A stretch of 64,000 nt of DNA from assembly GCF_002305895.1 (NCBI RefSeq), contig NZ_CP022203.1, positions 7,536,001 through 7,600,000 of the forward strand. Reading direction: 5' to 3'. Every line of letters begins with the position of its first letter. Positions within the stretch are counted from its first letter, which is position 1. Of this stretch, positions 50,031 to 60,557 are shown piece by piece. The notes under the pieces were generated by a model. That model was not told the origin of the DNA. It saw only the letters and a program-made list of their open reading frames with translations, and did no database searches. The stretch is from Corallococcus macrosporus DSM 14697. GTDB lineage: Bacteria; Myxococcota; Myxococcia; Myxococcales; Myxococcaceae. The position numbers and the translations under genes were made by a program.

Positions 50031-51668
50031 ATGCGTATCCCCCGGACCGACGCCCGCAGGAAGCTGCTCGGCGCGCTGTTGTGTACCTTCTCCGTCGCGG
50101 CCTGTGGCCCGGCCACGGAGGGCGAGCCGGCTGGCAGCGGTTCCGCCGAGCAGCCCGTCGTCTATGGCAACGACGACCGGATGGACGTGTACGAGCACCC
50201 CGACGCCACCTTGCGGCAGTACGCCATGCAGGCCAGCGCCGTCATGGTCGACCCGTACGAGATTGACGACTCGGACCCCAACAACGTCGTCTTCACCAGC
50301 CCCACCCTGGGCGAGTGGGTCAACCTCTGCTCGGGCCAGCGCTTCATCGACGACCCGTCGCCGGGCTACTGCTCGGGCACGCTCATCGACGATGACCTCC
50401 TGCTGACCGCCGGCCACTGCGTGACGGGCGCCGCCGACTGCCGGGACTTCAAGTGGGCCTTCAACTTCTTCCGCCCCGCCCAGAACGTCCTGCAGACCAT
50501 GACCACGCAGGACATCTTCGGCTGCAAGGAGATTGTCGTGCGGAAGGAGCAGACCATCGGTGGCCGCGAGCTGGACTACGCCATCATCCGGCTGGACCGC
50601 TCGGCGGCGCCGCGCTTCACCCCCGCGCCCGTCCGCCGGAGCAACACGGGCCTGGAGGTGGGCACCAGCGTGGCCGTCATCGGCTCGGGCAGCGGCATCC
50701 CGCTCAAGATTGACTCGGGCGGCAAGGTGCGCACCAGCCGCGCCAGCACGATGGACTACTTCATCGCCACCACCGACACCTTCGGCGGCAACTCCGGCTC
50801 GGCCGTCTACGACATGACGGACCACACCATCGCCGGCATCCTCGTCCGCGGCGCCACGGACTACGTCTACCAGGGGAGCTGCCGCGTCGTGAACGTGTGC
50901 GCGGAGACCGGCTGCAGCGGCGAGGACATCACCTACGTCAACCCGGCCGTCGACGAGTTCTGCGCCAGCCACAGCAGCGTCCGGCTGTGCGACAGCACGC
51001 CGCCGCCGCAGACGTCCTTCGACTTCACGGCCAGCGACACCGCCAACGCCACCGTGAACACCACCCGCCACACGGTGGAGCTCACGGCCGGTCAGAGCCT
51101 CACCGTGGGCACCTGCGGCGTGACGGGCGCCAGCGCCACCGGCGACACCTGGCTGCGCGTCAACGGCCCCAGCGGCACGGAAATCGCCTCCAGCGATGAC
51201 GGCTGCGCCGAGGGCCGGGGCTCCTATGTCACCCTCACCGCCGGGGCCGCCGGGGCGTACGAAATCATCGCGGGTTGCTTCAGCGACACCGCCTGCAGCG
51301 GCACGGTGGCGTGGAGCATCGGCACGGCGACCCCGCCGGCCTCCTCCGGCACCTTCAGCTACAGCTCGGTCAACTCCAACAGCGCGCGGCAGAACACCAC
51401 CAACGAGGACGTCACCCTCACCGCGGGCCAGCGCATCGCCTTTGGCACCTGCAACGTGGCGGGCGCCTCCGGCACGGGTGACTCGTTCCTCCGCCTGTAC
51501 AACGCCGCCGGCGCGCAGGTGAAGTTCAACGACGACGGCGCCGGCTGCGGCAGCCTGTCCCACGCGACCTACACGGTGCCGGCGAACGCGGGCGGCACGT
51601 ACCAGCTTCGCGCGGGCTGCTACGGCAACACGAGCTGCAGCGGCACGGTGGGCTGGAGCATCCAGTAG
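50031..51668 (+). CDS. Secreted trypsin-like serine protease lipoprotein with two C-terminal PPC-like repeats
   Basis: A 545-residue protein. Signal ends SVAACG (lipobox VAAC, Cys25). Trypsin fold: His in LLTAGHCV (about 133), Asp in ELDYAIIRLD (about 184), Ser in FGGNSGSAV (about 257), with Cys pairs. Then two about 95-residue repeats: FDFTASDTANATVNTTRHTVELTAGQ...GTVAWSI (about 327-425) and FSYSSVNSNSARQNTTNEDVTLTAGQ...GTVGWSI (about 440-545), beta-sandwich PPC-like modules, each with two Cys. Likely surface or vesicle-associated. A hairpin follows the stop. Confidence 0.88.
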   Translation: MRIPRTDARRKLLGALLCTFSVAACGPATEGEPAGSGSAEQPVVYGNDDRMDVYEHPDATLRQYAMQASAVMVDPYEIDDSDPNNVVFTSPTLGEWVNLCSGQRFIDDPSPGYCSGTLIDDDLLLTAGHCVTGAADCRDFKWAFNFFRPAQNVLQTMTTQDIFGCKEIVVRKEQTIGGRELDYAIIRLDRSAAPRFTPAPVRRSNTGLEVGTSVAVIGSGSGIPLKIDSGGKVRTSRASTMDYFIATTDTFGGNSGSAVYDMTDHTIAGILVRGATDYVYQGSCRVVNVCAETGCSGEDITYVNPAVDEFCASHSSVRLCDSTPPPQTSFDFTASDTANATVNTTRHTVELTAGQSLTVGTCGVTGASATGDTWLRVNGPSGTEIASSDDGCAEGRGSYVTLTAGAAGAYEIIAGCFSDTACSGTVAWSIGTATPPASSGTFSYSSVNSNSARQNTTNEDVTLTAGQRIAFGTCNVAGASGTGDSFLRLYNAAGAQVKFNDDGAGCGSLSHATYTVPANAGGTYQLRAGCYGNTSCSGTVGWSIQ

Positions 51669-51822: not shown

Positions 51823-52194
51823 GTGCTGAGGATTCGCCCCGAGCAGATGGTGTGCCTCGACGCGACGGTGCGCGGCGCCTACGTGAGCAGCGTGGTGCGC
51901 TTCCTGCGGGCGCAGCTCCCCCGGGAGAGCGGCGGCCTGGGGGAGCGCGAGCTGCGCGCCCAGGCGGAGCGCGGCATCGACGCGGCGGCCCGGCACGGCA
52001 TCACCGCCCGCTGGGACGTGGCGCGCTTCATCGCCTGCCAGCTCTGCCTGGGCGAGCACTTCGACACGGACCCGGCCCATGCCTGGCCCCAGGCCGTGCT
52101 CGCGCGGCCGTACCTGACGCCCTCCCGGAAGATGGACTGGATTGAGCGCCACTACCTGCGGCCGTACCGCGGGCGCTCGCCAGCCGTGCCCTGA
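51823..52194 (+). CDS. Small partner protein of the 1068-residue protease, T6SS accessory-like
   Basis: A 123-residue protein starting at GTG 51823 (TGGAGGGG site). LRIRPEQM at the start, then ERELRAQAERGIDAAARHGITARWDVARFIACQLCLGEHFDTDPAHAW. This E-L-R...GI..A..YGI....DV.RF......G..FD.DP pattern is one I associate with small genes beside type VI effectors in Proteobacteria. Stop is two bases before the next start, so translation is coupled. It may be an adaptor/chaperone for the large protein. Confidence 0.6.
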   Translation: MLRIRPEQMVCLDATVRGAYVSSVVRFLRAQLPRESGGLGERELRAQAERGIDAAARHGITARWDVARFIACQLCLGEHFDTDPAHAWPQAVLARPYLTPSRKMDWIERHYLRPYRGRSPAVP

Positions 52195-52196
52195 CG

Positions 52197-55100
52197 ATGC
52201 CCTACCTCCCCCTTCGCTGTGACTGGACGCACTTCGCGCCCTCCCAGGAGACGCTCGCCGTCACCTACGACCCGCCGGATGCGGGCAGGCTCGTCTCCGT
52301 CCGGCTGGAGGTGCGCGACCACGCCAATGTCCTGGTGTACCGCTCGGACGCGCTCGACTGTCAGGGAGGGCCCGCGGCCGTCACGTGGACAGGCGCGCTG
52401 AACGTGGGCAACGACGCCGTCCAGGAGCCCTTCGCCACGCCGCTGCGCGCGCCCTACACGCTCCAGGTCGACGCCGTCATTGAACCGGAGGCGCGTGAGG
52501 GGCTCCGTCAGCCGGAGGACCTGCCCAACACCGGGTTGGACCCGGTGATGGCCTGCGAGGCCCGGCGCGACCAGTCCCTCCCGGAGGAGGAGGCGCGGGC
52601 GCTGCCGCCTCCGCCGCCCACCACCGCGCGGGTCGACGTCCTCTATCATTCGGTGGAGGTCGTCCGCGGCCCCTGGCTGGCCACCGGAGAAGCGCTCACG
52701 CGAGGCACCCACGCCAGCATCTGCCACAAGCTCAACCAGCTCGGGTACTACGCCGGGCCTCCGGCGCGCGCGGCGGCGGGCACCACGGACCTGCTCGACA
52801 AGGCCAAGGAGCGCTTCCGGCGCAATCACGGCGACCTGCGCATCATCGCCGCGCCCACGAACGCCAACTTCGAGGACGCGCTGGACGGCGCGCTGGGCCA
52901 CGCCCACGGCGCCCTCCCGACGCTGACGGACGACCAGAGCGCGCCCATCGCGGAAGGGACCGCCATCCCCCAGGGGAACAACGACCCGCTGCGTGTCTAT
53001 GTGGAGGCCGTCGGGTTCGACGAAGACCTGGCCAACCAGACGGACGAATTCCTGCGGCAGATTCCCCCCAACCGGAGCCGCGGCGCCATCAACTGGAGCG
53101 CGCTCCACAACAAGACGGCGAGCGAGGCCGCCAAGCTCAACCGCCCGCTCGTGCCGCTGGAGGCGGTCATCTACCTCAAGGGCCACGATGACCGCCGCGT
53201 CGCCGCCCCACGCGCGGTGGGCGAGGTCCGGGTGGACTGGTCCGCGGACGAGCCCGGCGAGGACCTCTCACACCTGCCCCTGAACGACCGCGTCCATACG
53301 GGGACGCGGACCTACGTCGGCCGCGTCCTGCGCAGCAACCACGTCGACCTCCACCACGACGGCGGCACCAACTGCCCGGCGGCCTATGGGGGCATCCGCA
53401 CCGCGGCGAACAACTTCCGCAACCCCTTCTGGCGCGAGCCGCAGCCCTACGCGCCCCATGCCGTGCCCACCGAGGACGCCGCCGCGGCGACAATCTGGGT
53501 CCCCGCCTACACGAACGACGGCGCGCATCCGAACCGCGTGGGACGCGCTGGCGTCTACCTCCAGCCCTCATTGATTGCGGGCGACCGGTACAAGGTCCGC
53601 GCGCGGCTCAGCTATCAGGGCCGCCCCAACGCCATGGCGCTGGAGGCCGCCAACCCCGTCTGCCAGTACGAGACGAAGCCCATCGTCGTCTGGCGCCGGG
53701 TGGAGGTCTTCGGAGTCGTTGGCTGGCCCCTTCGCAACCATGGCGCGCTGCCAGCGAAGTGCCAGGCGCGCTACGCCGAGTCCTTCCTGCGGGTCGACTT
53801 CTCCCGGACCCGGTACCAGGCCATCACCGCGGTGCTCACCCACCAGGACTACGTGGACTGGCTGGCCCACATCGAGGTCCACGCCACCCCGGTCATCGGT
53901 CCGCTCAGGGCGGTGCTCGACGCAACCACCCTCCATGACGCCTGCCCCATCGTGCTGCGGAACCCGAACGCGGCGCTGAGCTCGGGCCAGAAGAACAACC
54001 TCTACTTCTTCACCAACAACATGTTCAGCGAGCTGGTCAGCGCGCCCAACGTCCCCAGCGCCGGGGGATTCCTGCTCGACCGCATCGCCCAGCGGATGCG
54101 CACCGGGCATGCGCCCTGCGGCGGCATCATCATGCTGGAGTACAAGCTGTCGGACGACATCAAGGAGGCGCTCCGGACCTCCGACGGCGGCGACGTGCCC
54201 ACGACGTCGAACGGCAACGGCGCCCTGATGGGCATCATCGACCAGGACGTGAACGCGAACGCCGACTTCGTCTTCACCCACGAGGTGGGCCACTGCTTCT
54301 GGCTGACCCACCACGAGGCCGCCTCGGGGGTGGTGCCGCAGCACCATGACCAGTTCGACCACAACTGCATGATGAGCTACCCGGACTGGGACGGGCGACG
54401 GCCCCAGTACCCGCACCAGGCGCCGGCCACGTTCGACCCGCACTTCTGCGGCAAGTGCAACCTCAAGCTGCGGGGCTGGGACATCACCCACGCCGACATC
54501 CTGGCGCTCGACCAGCCCACGTTCCCGGACCAGCTCTCCGCCCTCTTCTATTACGACCGCGCCGACCCCGGGCTCCGGTGGGACGTCGAGCTGGCGCACG
54601 TGCAGGACGCCTTCACCCGTGTCTCCCGCGGGCTGTTCCGGGAGCGCTTCTTCGACCGGAACGCGGACTTCGACACGTGGATGACGGACCTGGGGAACTG
54701 CGACATCTACCACCACGTCACCCACGGCAACGTCCGCTGCGCGAAGCACAAGGTGCGAGTGGCCTCCATGGGCACGGCCGTTCCCCGCTACCCGACGTGG
54801 TGCAGGAATGACGGCGCCAAGGTGAACCGGCTCAGCGCCGAGGAGCGGGACCTCTGCACGCGCACGGGCTTCGCCCCGGCCCCGCTCACGGAATGGGCGA
54901 AGTCCTCCCTCATCACCCCGAAGACGTACTGGCATGACCTGAGCAGCGTCATCCAATGGACCGTGGACCTCAACGACTCCAGCCAGGACATCGAGTTCAC
55001 CTACGAGCAGCTTCAACAGGCCTTCAAGCAGGGCCGGAAGGCGCCACGCCTGCTCGCCTTCTTCAGCTCGTGCCTGCTGGGTTGGGAGCGGCGCTTCGCC

Positions 55101-55403
55101 GAGCTCTTCATCAGCCGGGGCACGCCCTACGTCATCGCCTTCCGCAGCCGCTACCAGACCACCCAGGCGCTGCCGTTCAGCCAGCGGTTCTACCGGGTCC
55201 TCCGGGACAACGACTTCGCGCCTGACGCCATCCAGCGCGCCTTCATGACGGCCGCGGGGGACCACCCCCACGCGGAGCCCTGCCTCTTCACGGCCCAGGG
55301 CATCACCCGCTGCAGCGCCGCGACCCGAGGCGGGCAGGCGGCGTTCCAAGGCTGCGATTGGAGCAGCGACGCCTTCGACGCCCCGCGCTTCCCCAACCCC
55401 TGA
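52197..55403 (+). CDS. 1068-residue protein: metzincin-like zinc protease plus CHAT/caspase-like domain
   Basis: No single known family fits the full length. A peptidoglycan-binding-like helix pair lies near 165-205 (HKLNQLGYYAGPPA... KAKERFRRNHGDL). Residues 695-706 read HEVGHCFWLTHH: HExxH plus a third His six residues after the motif, as in metzincins (their Gly is Trp here). CMMSYP at 724-729 is a fitting Met-turn. Residues 830-1040 look like a CHAT domain: IYHHVTHGNVR with His843 and LAFFSSCLLG with Cys959, followed by GTPYVIAFRS, a caspase-type His/Cys dyad with typical spacing. No signal peptide. With the small gene before it, a secreted (perhaps type VI) effector is possible. Activity is unproven. 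Confidence 0.7.
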   Translation: MPYLPLRCDWTHFAPSQETLAVTYDPPDAGRLVSVRLEVRDHANVLVYRSDALDCQGGPAAVTWTGALNVGNDAVQEPFATPLRAPYTLQVDAVIEPEAREGLRQPEDLPNTGLDPVMACEARRDQSLPEEEARALPPPPPTTARVDVLYHSVEVVRGPWLATGEALTRGTHASICHKLNQLGYYAGPPARAAAGTTDLLDKAKERFRRNHGDLRIIAAPTNANFEDALDGALGHAHGALPTLTDDQSAPIAEGTAIPQGNNDPLRVYVEAVGFDEDLANQTDEFLRQIPPNRSRGAINWSALHNKTASEAAKLNRPLVPLEAVIYLKGHDDRRVAAPRAVGEVRVDWSADEPGEDLSHLPLNDRVHTGTRTYVGRVLRSNHVDLHHDGGTNCPAAYGGIRTAANNFRNPFWREPQPYAPHAVPTEDAAAATIWVPAYTNDGAHPNRVGRAGVYLQPSLIAGDRYKVRARLSYQGRPNAMALEAANPVCQYETKPIVVWRRVEVFGVVGWPLRNHGALPAKCQARYAESFLRVDFSRTRYQAITAVLTHQDYVDWLAHIEVHATPVIGPLRAVLDATTLHDACPIVLRNPNAALSSGQKNNLYFFTNNMFSELVSAPNVPSAGGFLLDRIAQRMRTGHAPCGGIIMLEYKLSDDIKEALRTSDGGDVPTTSNGNGALMGIIDQDVNANADFVFTHEVGHCFWLTHHEAASGVVPQHHDQFDHNCMMSYPDWDGRRPQYPHQAPATFDPHFCGKCNLKLRGWDITHADILALDQPTFPDQLSALFYYDRADPGLRWDVELAHVQDAFTRVSRGLFRERFFDRNADFDTWMTDLGNCDIYHHVTHGNVRCAKHKVRVASMGTAVPRYPTWCRNDGAKVNRLSAEERDLCTRTGFAPAPLTEWAKSSLITPKTYWHDLSSVIQWTVDLNDSSQDIEFTYEQLQQAFKQGRKAPRLLAFFSSCLLGWERRFAELFISRGTPYVIAFRSRYQTTQALPFSQRFYRVLRDNDFAPDAIQRAFMTAAGDHPHAEPCLFTAQGITRCSAATRGGQAAFQGCDWSSDAFDAPRFPNP

Positions 55404-58760: not shown

Positions 58761-60557
58761 ATGGGGACGAATGGACGGACCTGGCTGGCGCTGACGCTGG
58801 CCATGGCGACGTTGGCGGGCTGCTCGGGCGGTGCCGGCCCGGAGCAGGACTCGGACGGTGACGGTGACGGTGTCGTCGACGCCCTGGACTGCGCGCCGGG
58901 GGATGGCACGCGCTGGCGGTTCCTGGCGGGCCACGTGGACGCGGACCTGGACGGCCTGGGCGCGGGTGCCGCCCTCCAGAGCTGCGTGGGACACCAGCTC
59001 CCCGCGGGCCTGAGCGCGCAAGGCGGTGACTGCGCGCCCGACGATGCGTCCCGCTGGCGCGAACAGAGCGGCCTCTACCCGGACCAGGACAACGACGGGG
59101 CGACTGGCGAAGGCCCGGTGACGGCATGCGTGGGCGACACGCTCGTGGGCTACCGGTTGGAGGCGGGCCCGCGGGACTGTGATGACACGGACGCTCGAGT
59201 GTCGGCCTTGGCGCTGGCCTGGCCCGACCCGGACGGGGACGGCGTGGGCAGCGGCGAGCCCGTGTCCCACTGCGCCGGCGGGCAGCCGCCTGCGGGCCAT
59301 GCGGCGGTGGACGGCGACTGCGCGCCCGATGACCGCGTCCGTGCCCACTGGCTCGCGTACACCCACCGCGACGCGGACCGGGACGGCTTCACGGTGCCGG
59401 AGGAAGGCCGGCTGTGCGCCCTCGACCGGCTGCCGGAGGGCTACGCCCTGCGCGCCAACGGACTGGACTGCGATGACGCGAACGGCGCGCACTGGATGGA
59501 GCGCACCGTCTACGTGGACACCGACGGAGACGGCTTCGGCAGCGGCGAGTCCCAGACACAGTGCACGGGACAAACGGTGCCGCCGGGCTACGCGCTGGCT
59601 GCGGAGGACTGCGCGCCGGAGGACGGCACGCGGTGGCAGTGGCGCTCGTATGCGCATCGGGACGCGGATGGCGACGGCGACACCGTCCCGCAGCAAGGCG
59701 TGATGTGCAGTGGGGCGCAGCTTCCCCGGGGCTATGCCGAATGGCCCACCGGGCAGGACTGCGACGACCGTGACGCCCGCCGCATGGTGAGCTGGAGCGT
59801 GTTCCCGGACACGGACGGTGACGGCGTGGGCGCGGGCGCCCGGCAAACCGTCTGCGAGGGCCGCTCGCTGCCCGAGGGCTTCTCCCTGGCGGACACGGAC
59901 TGCGACGCCGTCGATTTCACGCGCTGGCAAGTGCTCGCGTACGCGCACCGGGACGCGGATGGTGACGGCTTCACCACACCCCAGGAAGGCTCACTGTGCG
60001 CGGGCGCGGCGCTTCCGGCGGGCCATGCCACCCAGGCCCAGGGCCACGACTGCGACGATACGGACCAGAGCGTCCACACCAACGTCCTGGCATGGCCGGA
60101 CACGGACGGTGACGGCGTCGGCGAGGGCGAGCCCGTCGTGCGGTGCACGGATGGCACGAGGCCCACGGCGCCCTGGTCCGCCCTGGGCGGGGACTGCGCG
60201 GCGGACGATGCGACGCGCTGGCGGCAGGTGGCCTACGCGCATGTGGACCGGGACGAGGATGGATACACGCGGCCCGAGGCTGGCAGCGTGTGCGCCGGTG
60301 ACTCACTGCACGAGCCCTACTTCGCCCAGGCCACGGGCAATGACTGCGACGACGCGGACGCCGTGCGCTACCGGTGGGCGGTGCTCTACCCGGACGCCGA
60401 CGGCGACGGCGTGGGCACCTCGCCCCGCACGATTCCCTGCCTCGGCGCACAGACGCCCTCGGGCTTCTCTCTCAAGGGCTACGACGTGGATGACTCGGAC
60501 GCGTCCATCCAGGAGGACGCCGAGGATGCGCTGATGGTGGAGCTCATCCTCGATTAG
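58761..60557 (+). CDS. Lipoprotein of eleven calcium-binding Asp-rich repeats
   Basis: A 598-residue surface lipoprotein (LAGC lipobox near 21). The mature chain holds about eleven modules of about 48 residues, each with one D-x-D-x-D-G loop (e.g. DTDGDGVG, DADGDGFT), a Cys pair and a terminal DCDD or DCAPDD turn. Modules alternate between two types: HRDADxDGxT and PDTDGDGVG. Loop type resembles thrombospondin-type-3/dockerin-like calcium loops. Function could be adhesive or structural. The DNA is also repeated (e.g. GGACACGGACGGTGACGGCGT at about 59810 and 60100). Confidence 0.82.
   Translation: MGTNGRTWLALTLAMATLAGCSGGAGPEQDSDGDGDGVVDALDCAPGDGTRWRFLAGHVDADLDGLGAGAALQSCVGHQLPAGLSAQGGDCAPDDASRWREQSGLYPDQDNDGATGEGPVTACVGDTLVGYRLEAGPRDCDDTDARVSALALAWPDPDGDGVGSGEPVSHCAGGQPPAGHAAVDGDCAPDDRVRAHWLAYTHRDADRDGFTVPEEGRLCALDRLPEGYALRANGLDCDDANGAHWMERTVYVDTDGDGFGSGESQTQCTGQTVPPGYALAAEDCAPEDGTRWQWRSYAHRDADGDGDTVPQQGVMCSGAQLPRGYAEWPTGQDCDDRDARRMVSWSVFPDTDGDGVGAGARQTVCEGRSLPEGFSLADTDCDAVDFTRWQVLAYAHRDADGDGFTTPQEGSLCAGAALPAGHATQAQGHDCDDTDQSVHTNVLAWPDTDGDGVGEGEPVVRCTDGTRPTAPWSALGGDCAADDATRWRQVAYAHVDRDEDGYTRPEAGSVCAGDSLHEPYFAQATGNDCDDADAVRYRWAVLYPDADGDGVGTSPRTIPCLGAQTPSGFSLKGYDVDDSDASIQEDAEDALMVELILD

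What the first reader, a model, noticed from the sequence alone, without database searches (positions are those of the whole stretch)
52197..55403. Single protein with both a metzincin-like zinc site and a CHAT/caspase-like dyad
Sequence shows HEVGHCFWLTHH (695-706) with downstream CMMSY Met-turn, and separately His843 in a THG motif and Cys959 in SSC, spaced as in CHAT cysteine proteases. Established: metzincins use HExxHxxGxxH plus a Met-turn; CHAT domains use a His...Cys dyad. A PG-binding-like region near 165-205 and no signal peptide suggest a secreted effector. I know of no described protein joining these two protease types, so it may be a new effector or a self-cleaving protease.
Basis: partly seen in the sequence, partly recalled or inferred. 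Interest (0 to 1): 0.8.

Follow-up and report, generated by a model that had tools for sequence, protein, structure and literature searches.

The report
Two-protease injected effector of Myxococcus
A predatory soil bacterium encodes one large protein that carries two unrelated protein-cutting enzymes, both from families that relatives place in the cargo of a molecular syringe (type VI secretion), so it is probably a new double-bladed weapon protein.

Summary
ORF 52197-55403 (1068 aa, Myxococcus) contains a metzincin-type zinc site and a CHAT/caspase-like His/Cys dyad, and both folds are supported independently. The metzincin module (residues ~498-765) models onto ADAM/snake-venom metzincins (VIA Z 10.3). 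H695, E696, H699, H705, M726 and a following CxxC are invariant in 22 relatives. The site is HExxHxxWxxH, not HExxHxxGxxH. The C-terminal module (773-1035) models onto SAVED-CHAT (Foldseek 1.8e-5, Z 14.1); H843 and C959 are invariant down to 25% identity.

The modules are separable. Short paralogues end right after the metzincin. The CHAT module recurs as the C-terminal extension of T6SS VgrG spikes. In a distant relative the metzincin gene lies in a contiguous PAAR - hub-like protein - DUF4123 - small protein - PG-binding - metzincin - exported-partner cassette. The window gene has the same small protein (51823-52194) directly upstream in every orthologue.

Most likely this is a type VI cargo effector with two protease warheads. 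Whether CHAT is a second toxin or a releasing/activating protease is open. No immunity gene is recognisable. Secretion, activity and toxicity are inferred, not shown. It is a new variant of a known kind (T6SS protease effectors), not a new category.

The parts
51823..52194 (+). P0002: 123-aa small protein, stop 2 bp before the effector's start; member of an unannotated multi-copy family (candidate adaptor/chaperone)
   Evidence: Directly upstream in all orthologues incl. 41%-identical copy in G062; family in 43 of 195 phylum genomes; relatives next to DUF4123 and before other effectors; no Pfam/NCBIfam hit
52197..55403 (+). P0001: 1068-aa metzincin + CHAT protein (putative T6SS cargo effector)
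   Evidence: full-length orthologues 72-75% in 7 other Myxococcus genomes and ~48% in G062
52218..52481 (+). N-terminal Ig-like region (residues ~8-95), also at the N-terminus of the short paralogues
   Evidence: Weak FlgD_ig match E 0.11; sequence comparison
52689..52826 (+). Peptidoglycan-binding-like region (residues ~165-210)
   Evidence: Aligned with PG_binding_1 regions of relatives (Pfam hits in L042 2.3e-9 and partner gene of L035 2.5e-11); below threshold here
53124..53741 (+). Beta-rich module shared with the paralogues (residues ~310-515)
   Evidence: Best-conserved part against paralogues
53688..54491 (+). Metzincin module (residues ~498-765)
   Evidence: Model me9f0a7db0ae5; Foldseek ADAM-8 4.2e-4; VIA Z 10.3 acutolysin A, 162 residues, 3.6 A
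54279..54314 (+). Zinc site HEVGHCFWLTHH (695-706)
   Evidence: Invariant HExxHxxxLxH in 22 sequences
54366..54380 (+). Met-turn CMMSY (724-728)
   Evidence: C724, M726, Y728 invariant in 22 sequences
54447..54458 (+). CGKC knuckle (751-754) after the Met-turn, followed by LRGW
   Evidence: C751, G752, C754 and LRGW invariant
54513..55301 (+). CHAT/caspase-like module (residues ~773-1035)
   Evidence: Model mce4cc646c06b; SAVED-CHAT 8tl0 Foldseek 1.8e-5, VIA Z 14.1, 179 residues, 3.3 A; hhalign to Pfam-CHAT proteins of own genome prob 92.6, E 4.4e-7
54723..54725 (+). Putative catalytic His843 (YHHxxHGN)
   Evidence: Invariant in 11 sequences; follows model strand 74-78
55071..55073 (+). Putative catalytic Cys959 (SSC/DTC-xGWE)
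   Evidence: Invariant in 11 sequences; aligned to the Cys of Pfam-CHAT proteins

Best explanation
P0001 is a cargo effector of the Myxococcus type VI secretion system with two protease warheads. A front half (Ig-like, PG-binding-like and beta-rich modules) and the co-encoded small protein P0002 load it on the spike. After injection, the metzincin module (Zn on H695/H699/H705, E696 as general base, M726 Met-turn) and the C-terminal CHAT module (H843/C959) each cut proteins in the recipient. The likeliest arrangement is two independently evolved effector domains fused into one bifunctional toxin, because each occurs alone at the C-terminal (toxin) position in relatives. Shown here: both folds, invariant catalytic residues, modular reuse, VgrG-CHAT fusions, and a PAAR/DUF4123 cassette holding a metzincin homologue. 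Inferred: secretion, catalytic activity, toxicity, and that P0002 is an adaptor.
For: Folds; profile links, with negative controls near zero. Invariant catalytic residues. The metzincin occurs as the last domain in short paralogues. CHAT occurs as the last domain of VgrG (L039 TIGR03361 3e-182; Phage_GPD 2e-89; also L041, L040, and L038, where the VgrG is split over two ORFs), L038 and L039 lying beside TssK/L/M-like genes. L172, an order-level relative, has contiguous PAAR (9.3e-19), a GPD/YQBQ hub-like protein, DUF4123 (2.7e-32), P0002-like, CarboxypepD_reg/PG-binding-like, metzincin (1.4e-101) and exported partner genes on one strand. P0002-like genes sit by DUF4123 and before PLD, endonuclease-like and, in Azospirillum, lipase-plus-ankyrin genes. 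P0002-P0001 is the only conserved pair when synteny is lost in G062. The own genome has a T6SS cluster with two VgrGs, matching M. xanthus vgrG1 and vgrG2-tsxEI (PMC5801462). Fast evolution: 75% identity beside 98% for SerA.
Against: No VgrG, PAAR or DUF4123 gene in the window near P0001, and no PF05488 PAAR match in the own genome. No recognisable immunity gene beside P0001. The exported partner of the short paralogues has one full homologue in the genome, at the other paralogue, plus two short weak matches. The small genes downstream of VgrG-CHAT have no counterpart found in the window. The C-terminal CHAT could be a processing protease instead. Models are of middling confidence (pLDDT ~69), with poor loops in both domains. 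No biochemical data.
Confidence: 0.62

Rival explanations
1. Single-toxin effector with an internal release switch: the CHAT module is an autoprocessing protease (as caspase-like domains are in many polymorphic toxins) that cuts P0001 after delivery and frees or activates the metzincin.
For: Caspase-like domains are frequent releasing peptidases in polymorphic toxins, also together with metallopeptidase toxins (PMC3482391). Both domains keep their catalytic residues in all fusions.
Against: Releasing domains usually lie just upstream of the toxin, whereas CHAT is the last domain here. The same CHAT is the last domain of VgrG without any metzincin. Short metzincins do without CHAT.
Confidence: 0.2
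2. Not a type VI cargo: P0001 is released by another route (outer-membrane vesicles, lysis) as a predation protease, and P0002 is unrelated to secretion.
For: Myxococcus uses secreted hydrolases and OMVs for predation (general knowledge; PMC4158809 listed). No T6SS gene is adjacent in the window. A secreted-type trypsin-like gene lies upstream (50031-51668).
Against: No signal peptide is evident at the N-terminus. VgrG-CHAT fusions and the PAAR-DUF4123-P0002-metzincin cassette favour a spike-linked cargo. The trypsin-like gene is not kept beside the pair in G062.
Confidence: 0.12
3. Intracellular regulated protease (programmed death or anti-phage defence), as for other CHAT proteins in bacteria.
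For: CHAT proteases act in CRISPR systems (Craspase, SAVED-CHAT) and the closest fold is SAVED-CHAT.
Against: The sampled relatives of this CHAT branch are VgrG fusions rather than CRISPR or STAND proteins. No CRISPR, gasdermin or nucleotide-sensor gene was recognised among the window genes scanned. A PG-binding-like region would be odd in the cytoplasm.
Confidence: 0.06

Closest known systems
VgrG2b C-terminal metallopeptidase / Tpe-Tpi effector-immunity family (PMC6899460)
   Same: Zincin effector domain delivered by T6SS; exported immunity protein encoded next to it, as in the short Myxococcus metzincin paralogues
   Different: P0001 has the metzincin signature HExxHxxxLxH plus Met-turn and ADAM-like fold, is not fused to VgrG, carries a second protease, and lacks a recognisable immunity gene
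Adamalysin/reprolysin-type metzincins (M12B), fragilysin, archaemetzincin
   Same: Three-His zinc site, Met-turn, best structural matches
   Different: Trp/Phe replaces the motif Gly; unique CxxC-LRGW tail; no Pfam match above cut-off; embedded in a secretion-cargo architecture
CHAT proteases: SAVED-CHAT (PDB 8tl0), TPR-CHAT of Craspase, separase
   Same: Fold, His and Cys dyad positions, helix-strand order; Z 14.1 and 12
   Different: No TPR or SAVED sensor; C-terminal in an effector or VgrG; Pfam CHAT misses P0001 (only 0.18 for L038)
Polymorphic toxins with caspase-like and metallopeptidase domains (Zhang et al. 2012, PMC3482391)
   Same: Concept: caspase-like domain as releaser or C-terminal toxin, metallopeptidase as toxin, both in one protein in some cases
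   Different: Different protease families, different order, and other export routes listed (T7SS, PVC, TcdB/TcaC, T2SS for caspase toxins)
TsxE/TsxI of M. xanthus (PMC5801462)
   Same: Effector of the same single T6SS; LysM/cell-wall-binding plus enzymatic domain
   Different: Amidohydrolase next to vgrG2; P0001 is an orphan cassette and a protease

Membership tests
Metzincin metallopeptidases | HExxHxxGxxH/D zinc motif | tested here: inconclusive
   HExxH and third His met and invariant; Gly replaced by Trp; one distant relative has the Gly
Metzincin metallopeptidases | Met-turn downstream of the zinc helix | tested here: met
   M726 invariant in 22 sequences
Metzincin metallopeptidases | Metzincin fold | tested here: met
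   All leading structural matches are metzincins, Z 10.3, Foldseek 4.2e-4; model pLDDT 69.5
Metzincin metallopeptidases | Zinc-dependent proteolysis | not testable with these tools
   needs assay
CHAT/caspase-like (clan CD) proteases | Caspase-like alpha/beta fold with His after one strand and Cys after the next core strand | tested here: met
   8tl0 Foldseek 1.8e-5; Z 14.1 CHAT, 12 separase, ~10 caspases; H843 and C959 follow model strands
CHAT/caspase-like (clan CD) proteases | Sequence profile match | tested here: inconclusive
   Pfam CHAT not hit by P0001; hhalign to Pfam-CHAT proteins prob 92.6-94.3
CHAT/caspase-like (clan CD) proteases | Cysteine protease activity | not testable with these tools
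   needs assay
T6SS effectors | Physical link to a spike component (VgrG, PAAR, Hcp) or its adaptor, in this protein | tested here: inconclusive
   None beside P0001 itself; met for relatives of each module
T6SS effectors | T6SS-dependent export | not testable with these tools
   needs secretion assay
T6SS antibacterial effector-immunity pairs | Adjacent immunity gene | tested here: inconclusive
   No homologue of the paralogues' exported partner near P0001, but an unrelated immunity protein cannot be excluded; short paralogues do have the partner

The most novel reading that the evidence does not exclude
P0001 is a self-contained two-step proteolytic weapon: after T6SS injection the CHAT module is switched on by a signal in the recipient and cuts P0001 itself, releasing an ADAM-like metzincin, while also cutting target proteins. 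One protease would license another inside a single injected toxin, and this could explain why no immunity gene is needed.
Probability: 0.15. Interest if true: 0.85.

Novelty: new variant of a known kind. Interest (0 to 1): 0.6.

Why it matters
It adds two protease branches (an ADAM-like metzincin and a CHAT) to the known type VI effector chemistries and shows them joined in one cargo. It predicts two substrates for one injected protein in a genetically tractable predator, M. xanthus, where one T6SS effector pair (TsxEI) has been characterised (PMC5801462). It also exposes an unannotated small-protein family that marks effector cassettes across Myxococcota.

Tried and rejected
Chance motifs: rejected by invariance and folds. 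Pfam, NCBIfam and PDB sequence searches gave no domain above cut-off. No relatives in plasmid or phage records. Direct clustering of P0002-like genes with VgrG in the genus was looked for by comparing positions: nothing closer than ~12 kb was noticed, so the link runs through DUF4123/PAAR cassettes only. Immunity by a homologue of the exported partner: one full homologue in the own genome, at the other paralogue, plus two short weak matches. Domain-wise dN/dS was computed but is unreliable at this GC content and is not used. A first CHAT control alignment contained one wrong-strand sequence (L094); repeated with it corrected, same result. His843 could not be aligned reliably by sequence profile alone, so that half rests on conservation and the structural match. 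Viral and metagenome collections were not scanned.

Full report
What was checked. The ORF 52197-55403 translates to 1068 residues. The window lies in a complete 8.97-Mb Myxococcus genome (M. xanthus strains carry the orthologue). One correction: the zinc motif has Trp where the canonical metzincin motif has Gly.

Relatives. A whole-phylum search (195 genomes) found full-length orthologues in eight Myxococcus genomes including this one (72-75% identity to it) and one more distant copy (G062, 46-49% over the aligned parts). Beyond these, matches are partial and fall into two groups. Group one: 680- to 980-aa proteins in many Myxococcaceae, one of them in this genome (L035), match residues ~310-540 and ~690-768 and end just after the metzincin. 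Group two: proteins matching only ~948-1035. These are VgrG proteins with a C-terminal extension (L039: TIGR03361 3e-182; Phage_GPD 2e-89; also L041, L040, and L038, where the VgrG is split over two ORFs), L038 and L039 beside genes that look like TssK/TssL/TssM (identified by sequence appearance, not by a family search). So the two protease modules are independent evolutionary units that were joined.

Metzincin module. In 22 sequences the zinc site, H717/D718, C724, M726, Y728 and the C751-x-x-C754...LRGW tail are invariant. The predicted structure (pLDDT 69.5, pTM 0.75) matches ADAM-8 and snake-venom metzincins (Foldseek E 4.2e-4 for the best; VIA Z 10.3, 162 residues at 3.6 A, model 199-463 = protein 498-762); fragilysin and archaemetzincin follow in the Foldseek list. 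A profile comparison with M43 proteins of relatives hits the zinc helix only (prob 88, E 3e-6).

CHAT module. In 11 sequences H843 and C959 with their surroundings (YHHxxHGxV; xxCxxxWE) are conserved, the two residues themselves invariant, across 25-26% identity to the VgrG forms. The model (pLDDT 69.2, pTM 0.73) matches SAVED-CHAT 8tl0 (Foldseek 1.8e-5; Z 14.1, 179 residues at 3.3 A), then separase (Z 12), gingipain (11.7) and caspases (~10). Profile alignment to Pfam-CHAT proteins gives prob 92.6-94.3, with negative controls at or below 0.5.

Cassette logic. P0002 (51823-52194) ends 2 bp before P0001 and accompanies it in every orthologue, even where the rest of the neighbourhood differs. 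Its family, absent from Pfam and NCBIfam, occurs in 43 of 195 genomes with up to 11 copies. Sampled copies lie beside DUF4123 (L147, L164, L149, L158: 7e-30 to 9e-34) and precede large proteins such as a PLD-like enzyme and endonuclease-like enzymes (weak); a weak plasmid match in Azospirillum precedes an annotated phospholipase with an ankyrin gene behind it. That DUF4123 proteins are T6SS effector adaptors/chaperones is established knowledge. In G019 a contiguous same-strand run reads PAAR (9.3e-19), hub-like protein (YQBQ 1.6e-8; GPD below cut-off), DUF4123 (2.7e-32), P0002-like (located by the A4 profile search), CarboxypepD_reg-like/PG-binding-like protein, metzincin homologue (HEVGHHLFMPH, 1.4e-101) and exported-partner homologue. 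This is the strongest link of the metzincin family to a contractile spike. In the short-paralogue loci the PG-binding partner and the ~530-aa partner with an apparent signal sequence are conserved, the layout of the VgrG2b/Tpi metallopeptidase pair, whose immunity protein is periplasmic (PMC6899460).

What is missing. P0001 has no such partner; the full-length homologue in the genome belongs to the other paralogue. No VgrG, PAAR or DUF4123 lies in the window near it. The genome has a T6SS with two VgrG genes, as M. xanthus DK1622 does, whose authors allow for further effectors unlinked to vgrG (PMC5801462). P0001 has diverged faster than its neighbours (75% vs 98% for SerA), as weapons often do.

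Interpretation. Position in relatives argues that each module is a toxin in its own right, hence the two-warhead reading (0.62). CHAT as a releasing protease is the main rival (0.2), given the precedent of caspase-like releasing domains in polymorphic toxins (PMC3482391). Secretion, activity, targets and the role of P0002 are inferred.

Novelty. Protease effectors of T6SS are known (VgrG2b and the Tpe metallopeptidases, PMC6899460 and PMC9846239; a cysteine protease toxin acting on GyrB/ParE, PMC12136450, listed). The literature searches returned no T6SS effector with a CHAT domain or a metzincin fold and no fusion of the two; absence from that library is not proof. I therefore call it a new variant of a known kind.

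Noticed in passing
51823-52194; family in L067, L068, L069, L147-L169: Unannotated ~120-aa protein family, up to 11 copies per genome in Myxococcota, next to DUF4123 and upstream of diverse large putative effectors; could serve as a marker for T6SS effector cassettes.
   Followed up: partly
L035:5541-9840 (own genome 3.84 Mb): Paralogous cassette: PG-binding protein, ~700-aa metzincin, ~530-aa partner with apparent signal sequence (candidate immunity/inhibitor); conserved in about 20 Myxococcaceae loci.
   Followed up: partly
L040:6867-8171, L039:6498-7801, L041:6958-8255, L038:6590-7911: Two small genes (160 and 179 aa, no Pfam hit) conserved downstream of every VgrG-CHAT gene; candidate immunity or adaptor genes.
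   Followed up: partly
L067:3789-6815 (own genome 4.36 Mb): 1008-aa protein behind a P0002-like gene, with Ig-like repeats, zinc-ribbon-like Cys pairs and a stretch resembling a carbon-nitrogen hydrolase; another candidate effector.
   Followed up: no
50031-51668: Trypsin-like protease with two PPC domains and an apparent lipoprotein/signal sequence, directly upstream of P0002 in Myxococcus but not in G062.
   Followed up: no
58761-60557: Lipoprotein-like protein made of repeated DxDGDG calcium-binding-type motifs (cell-surface repeat protein).
   Followed up: no
L086 (G012), frame 1: Adenylate/guanylate-cyclase-like domain fused to a CHAT domain in one protein, found with the CHAT profile.
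   Followed up: no
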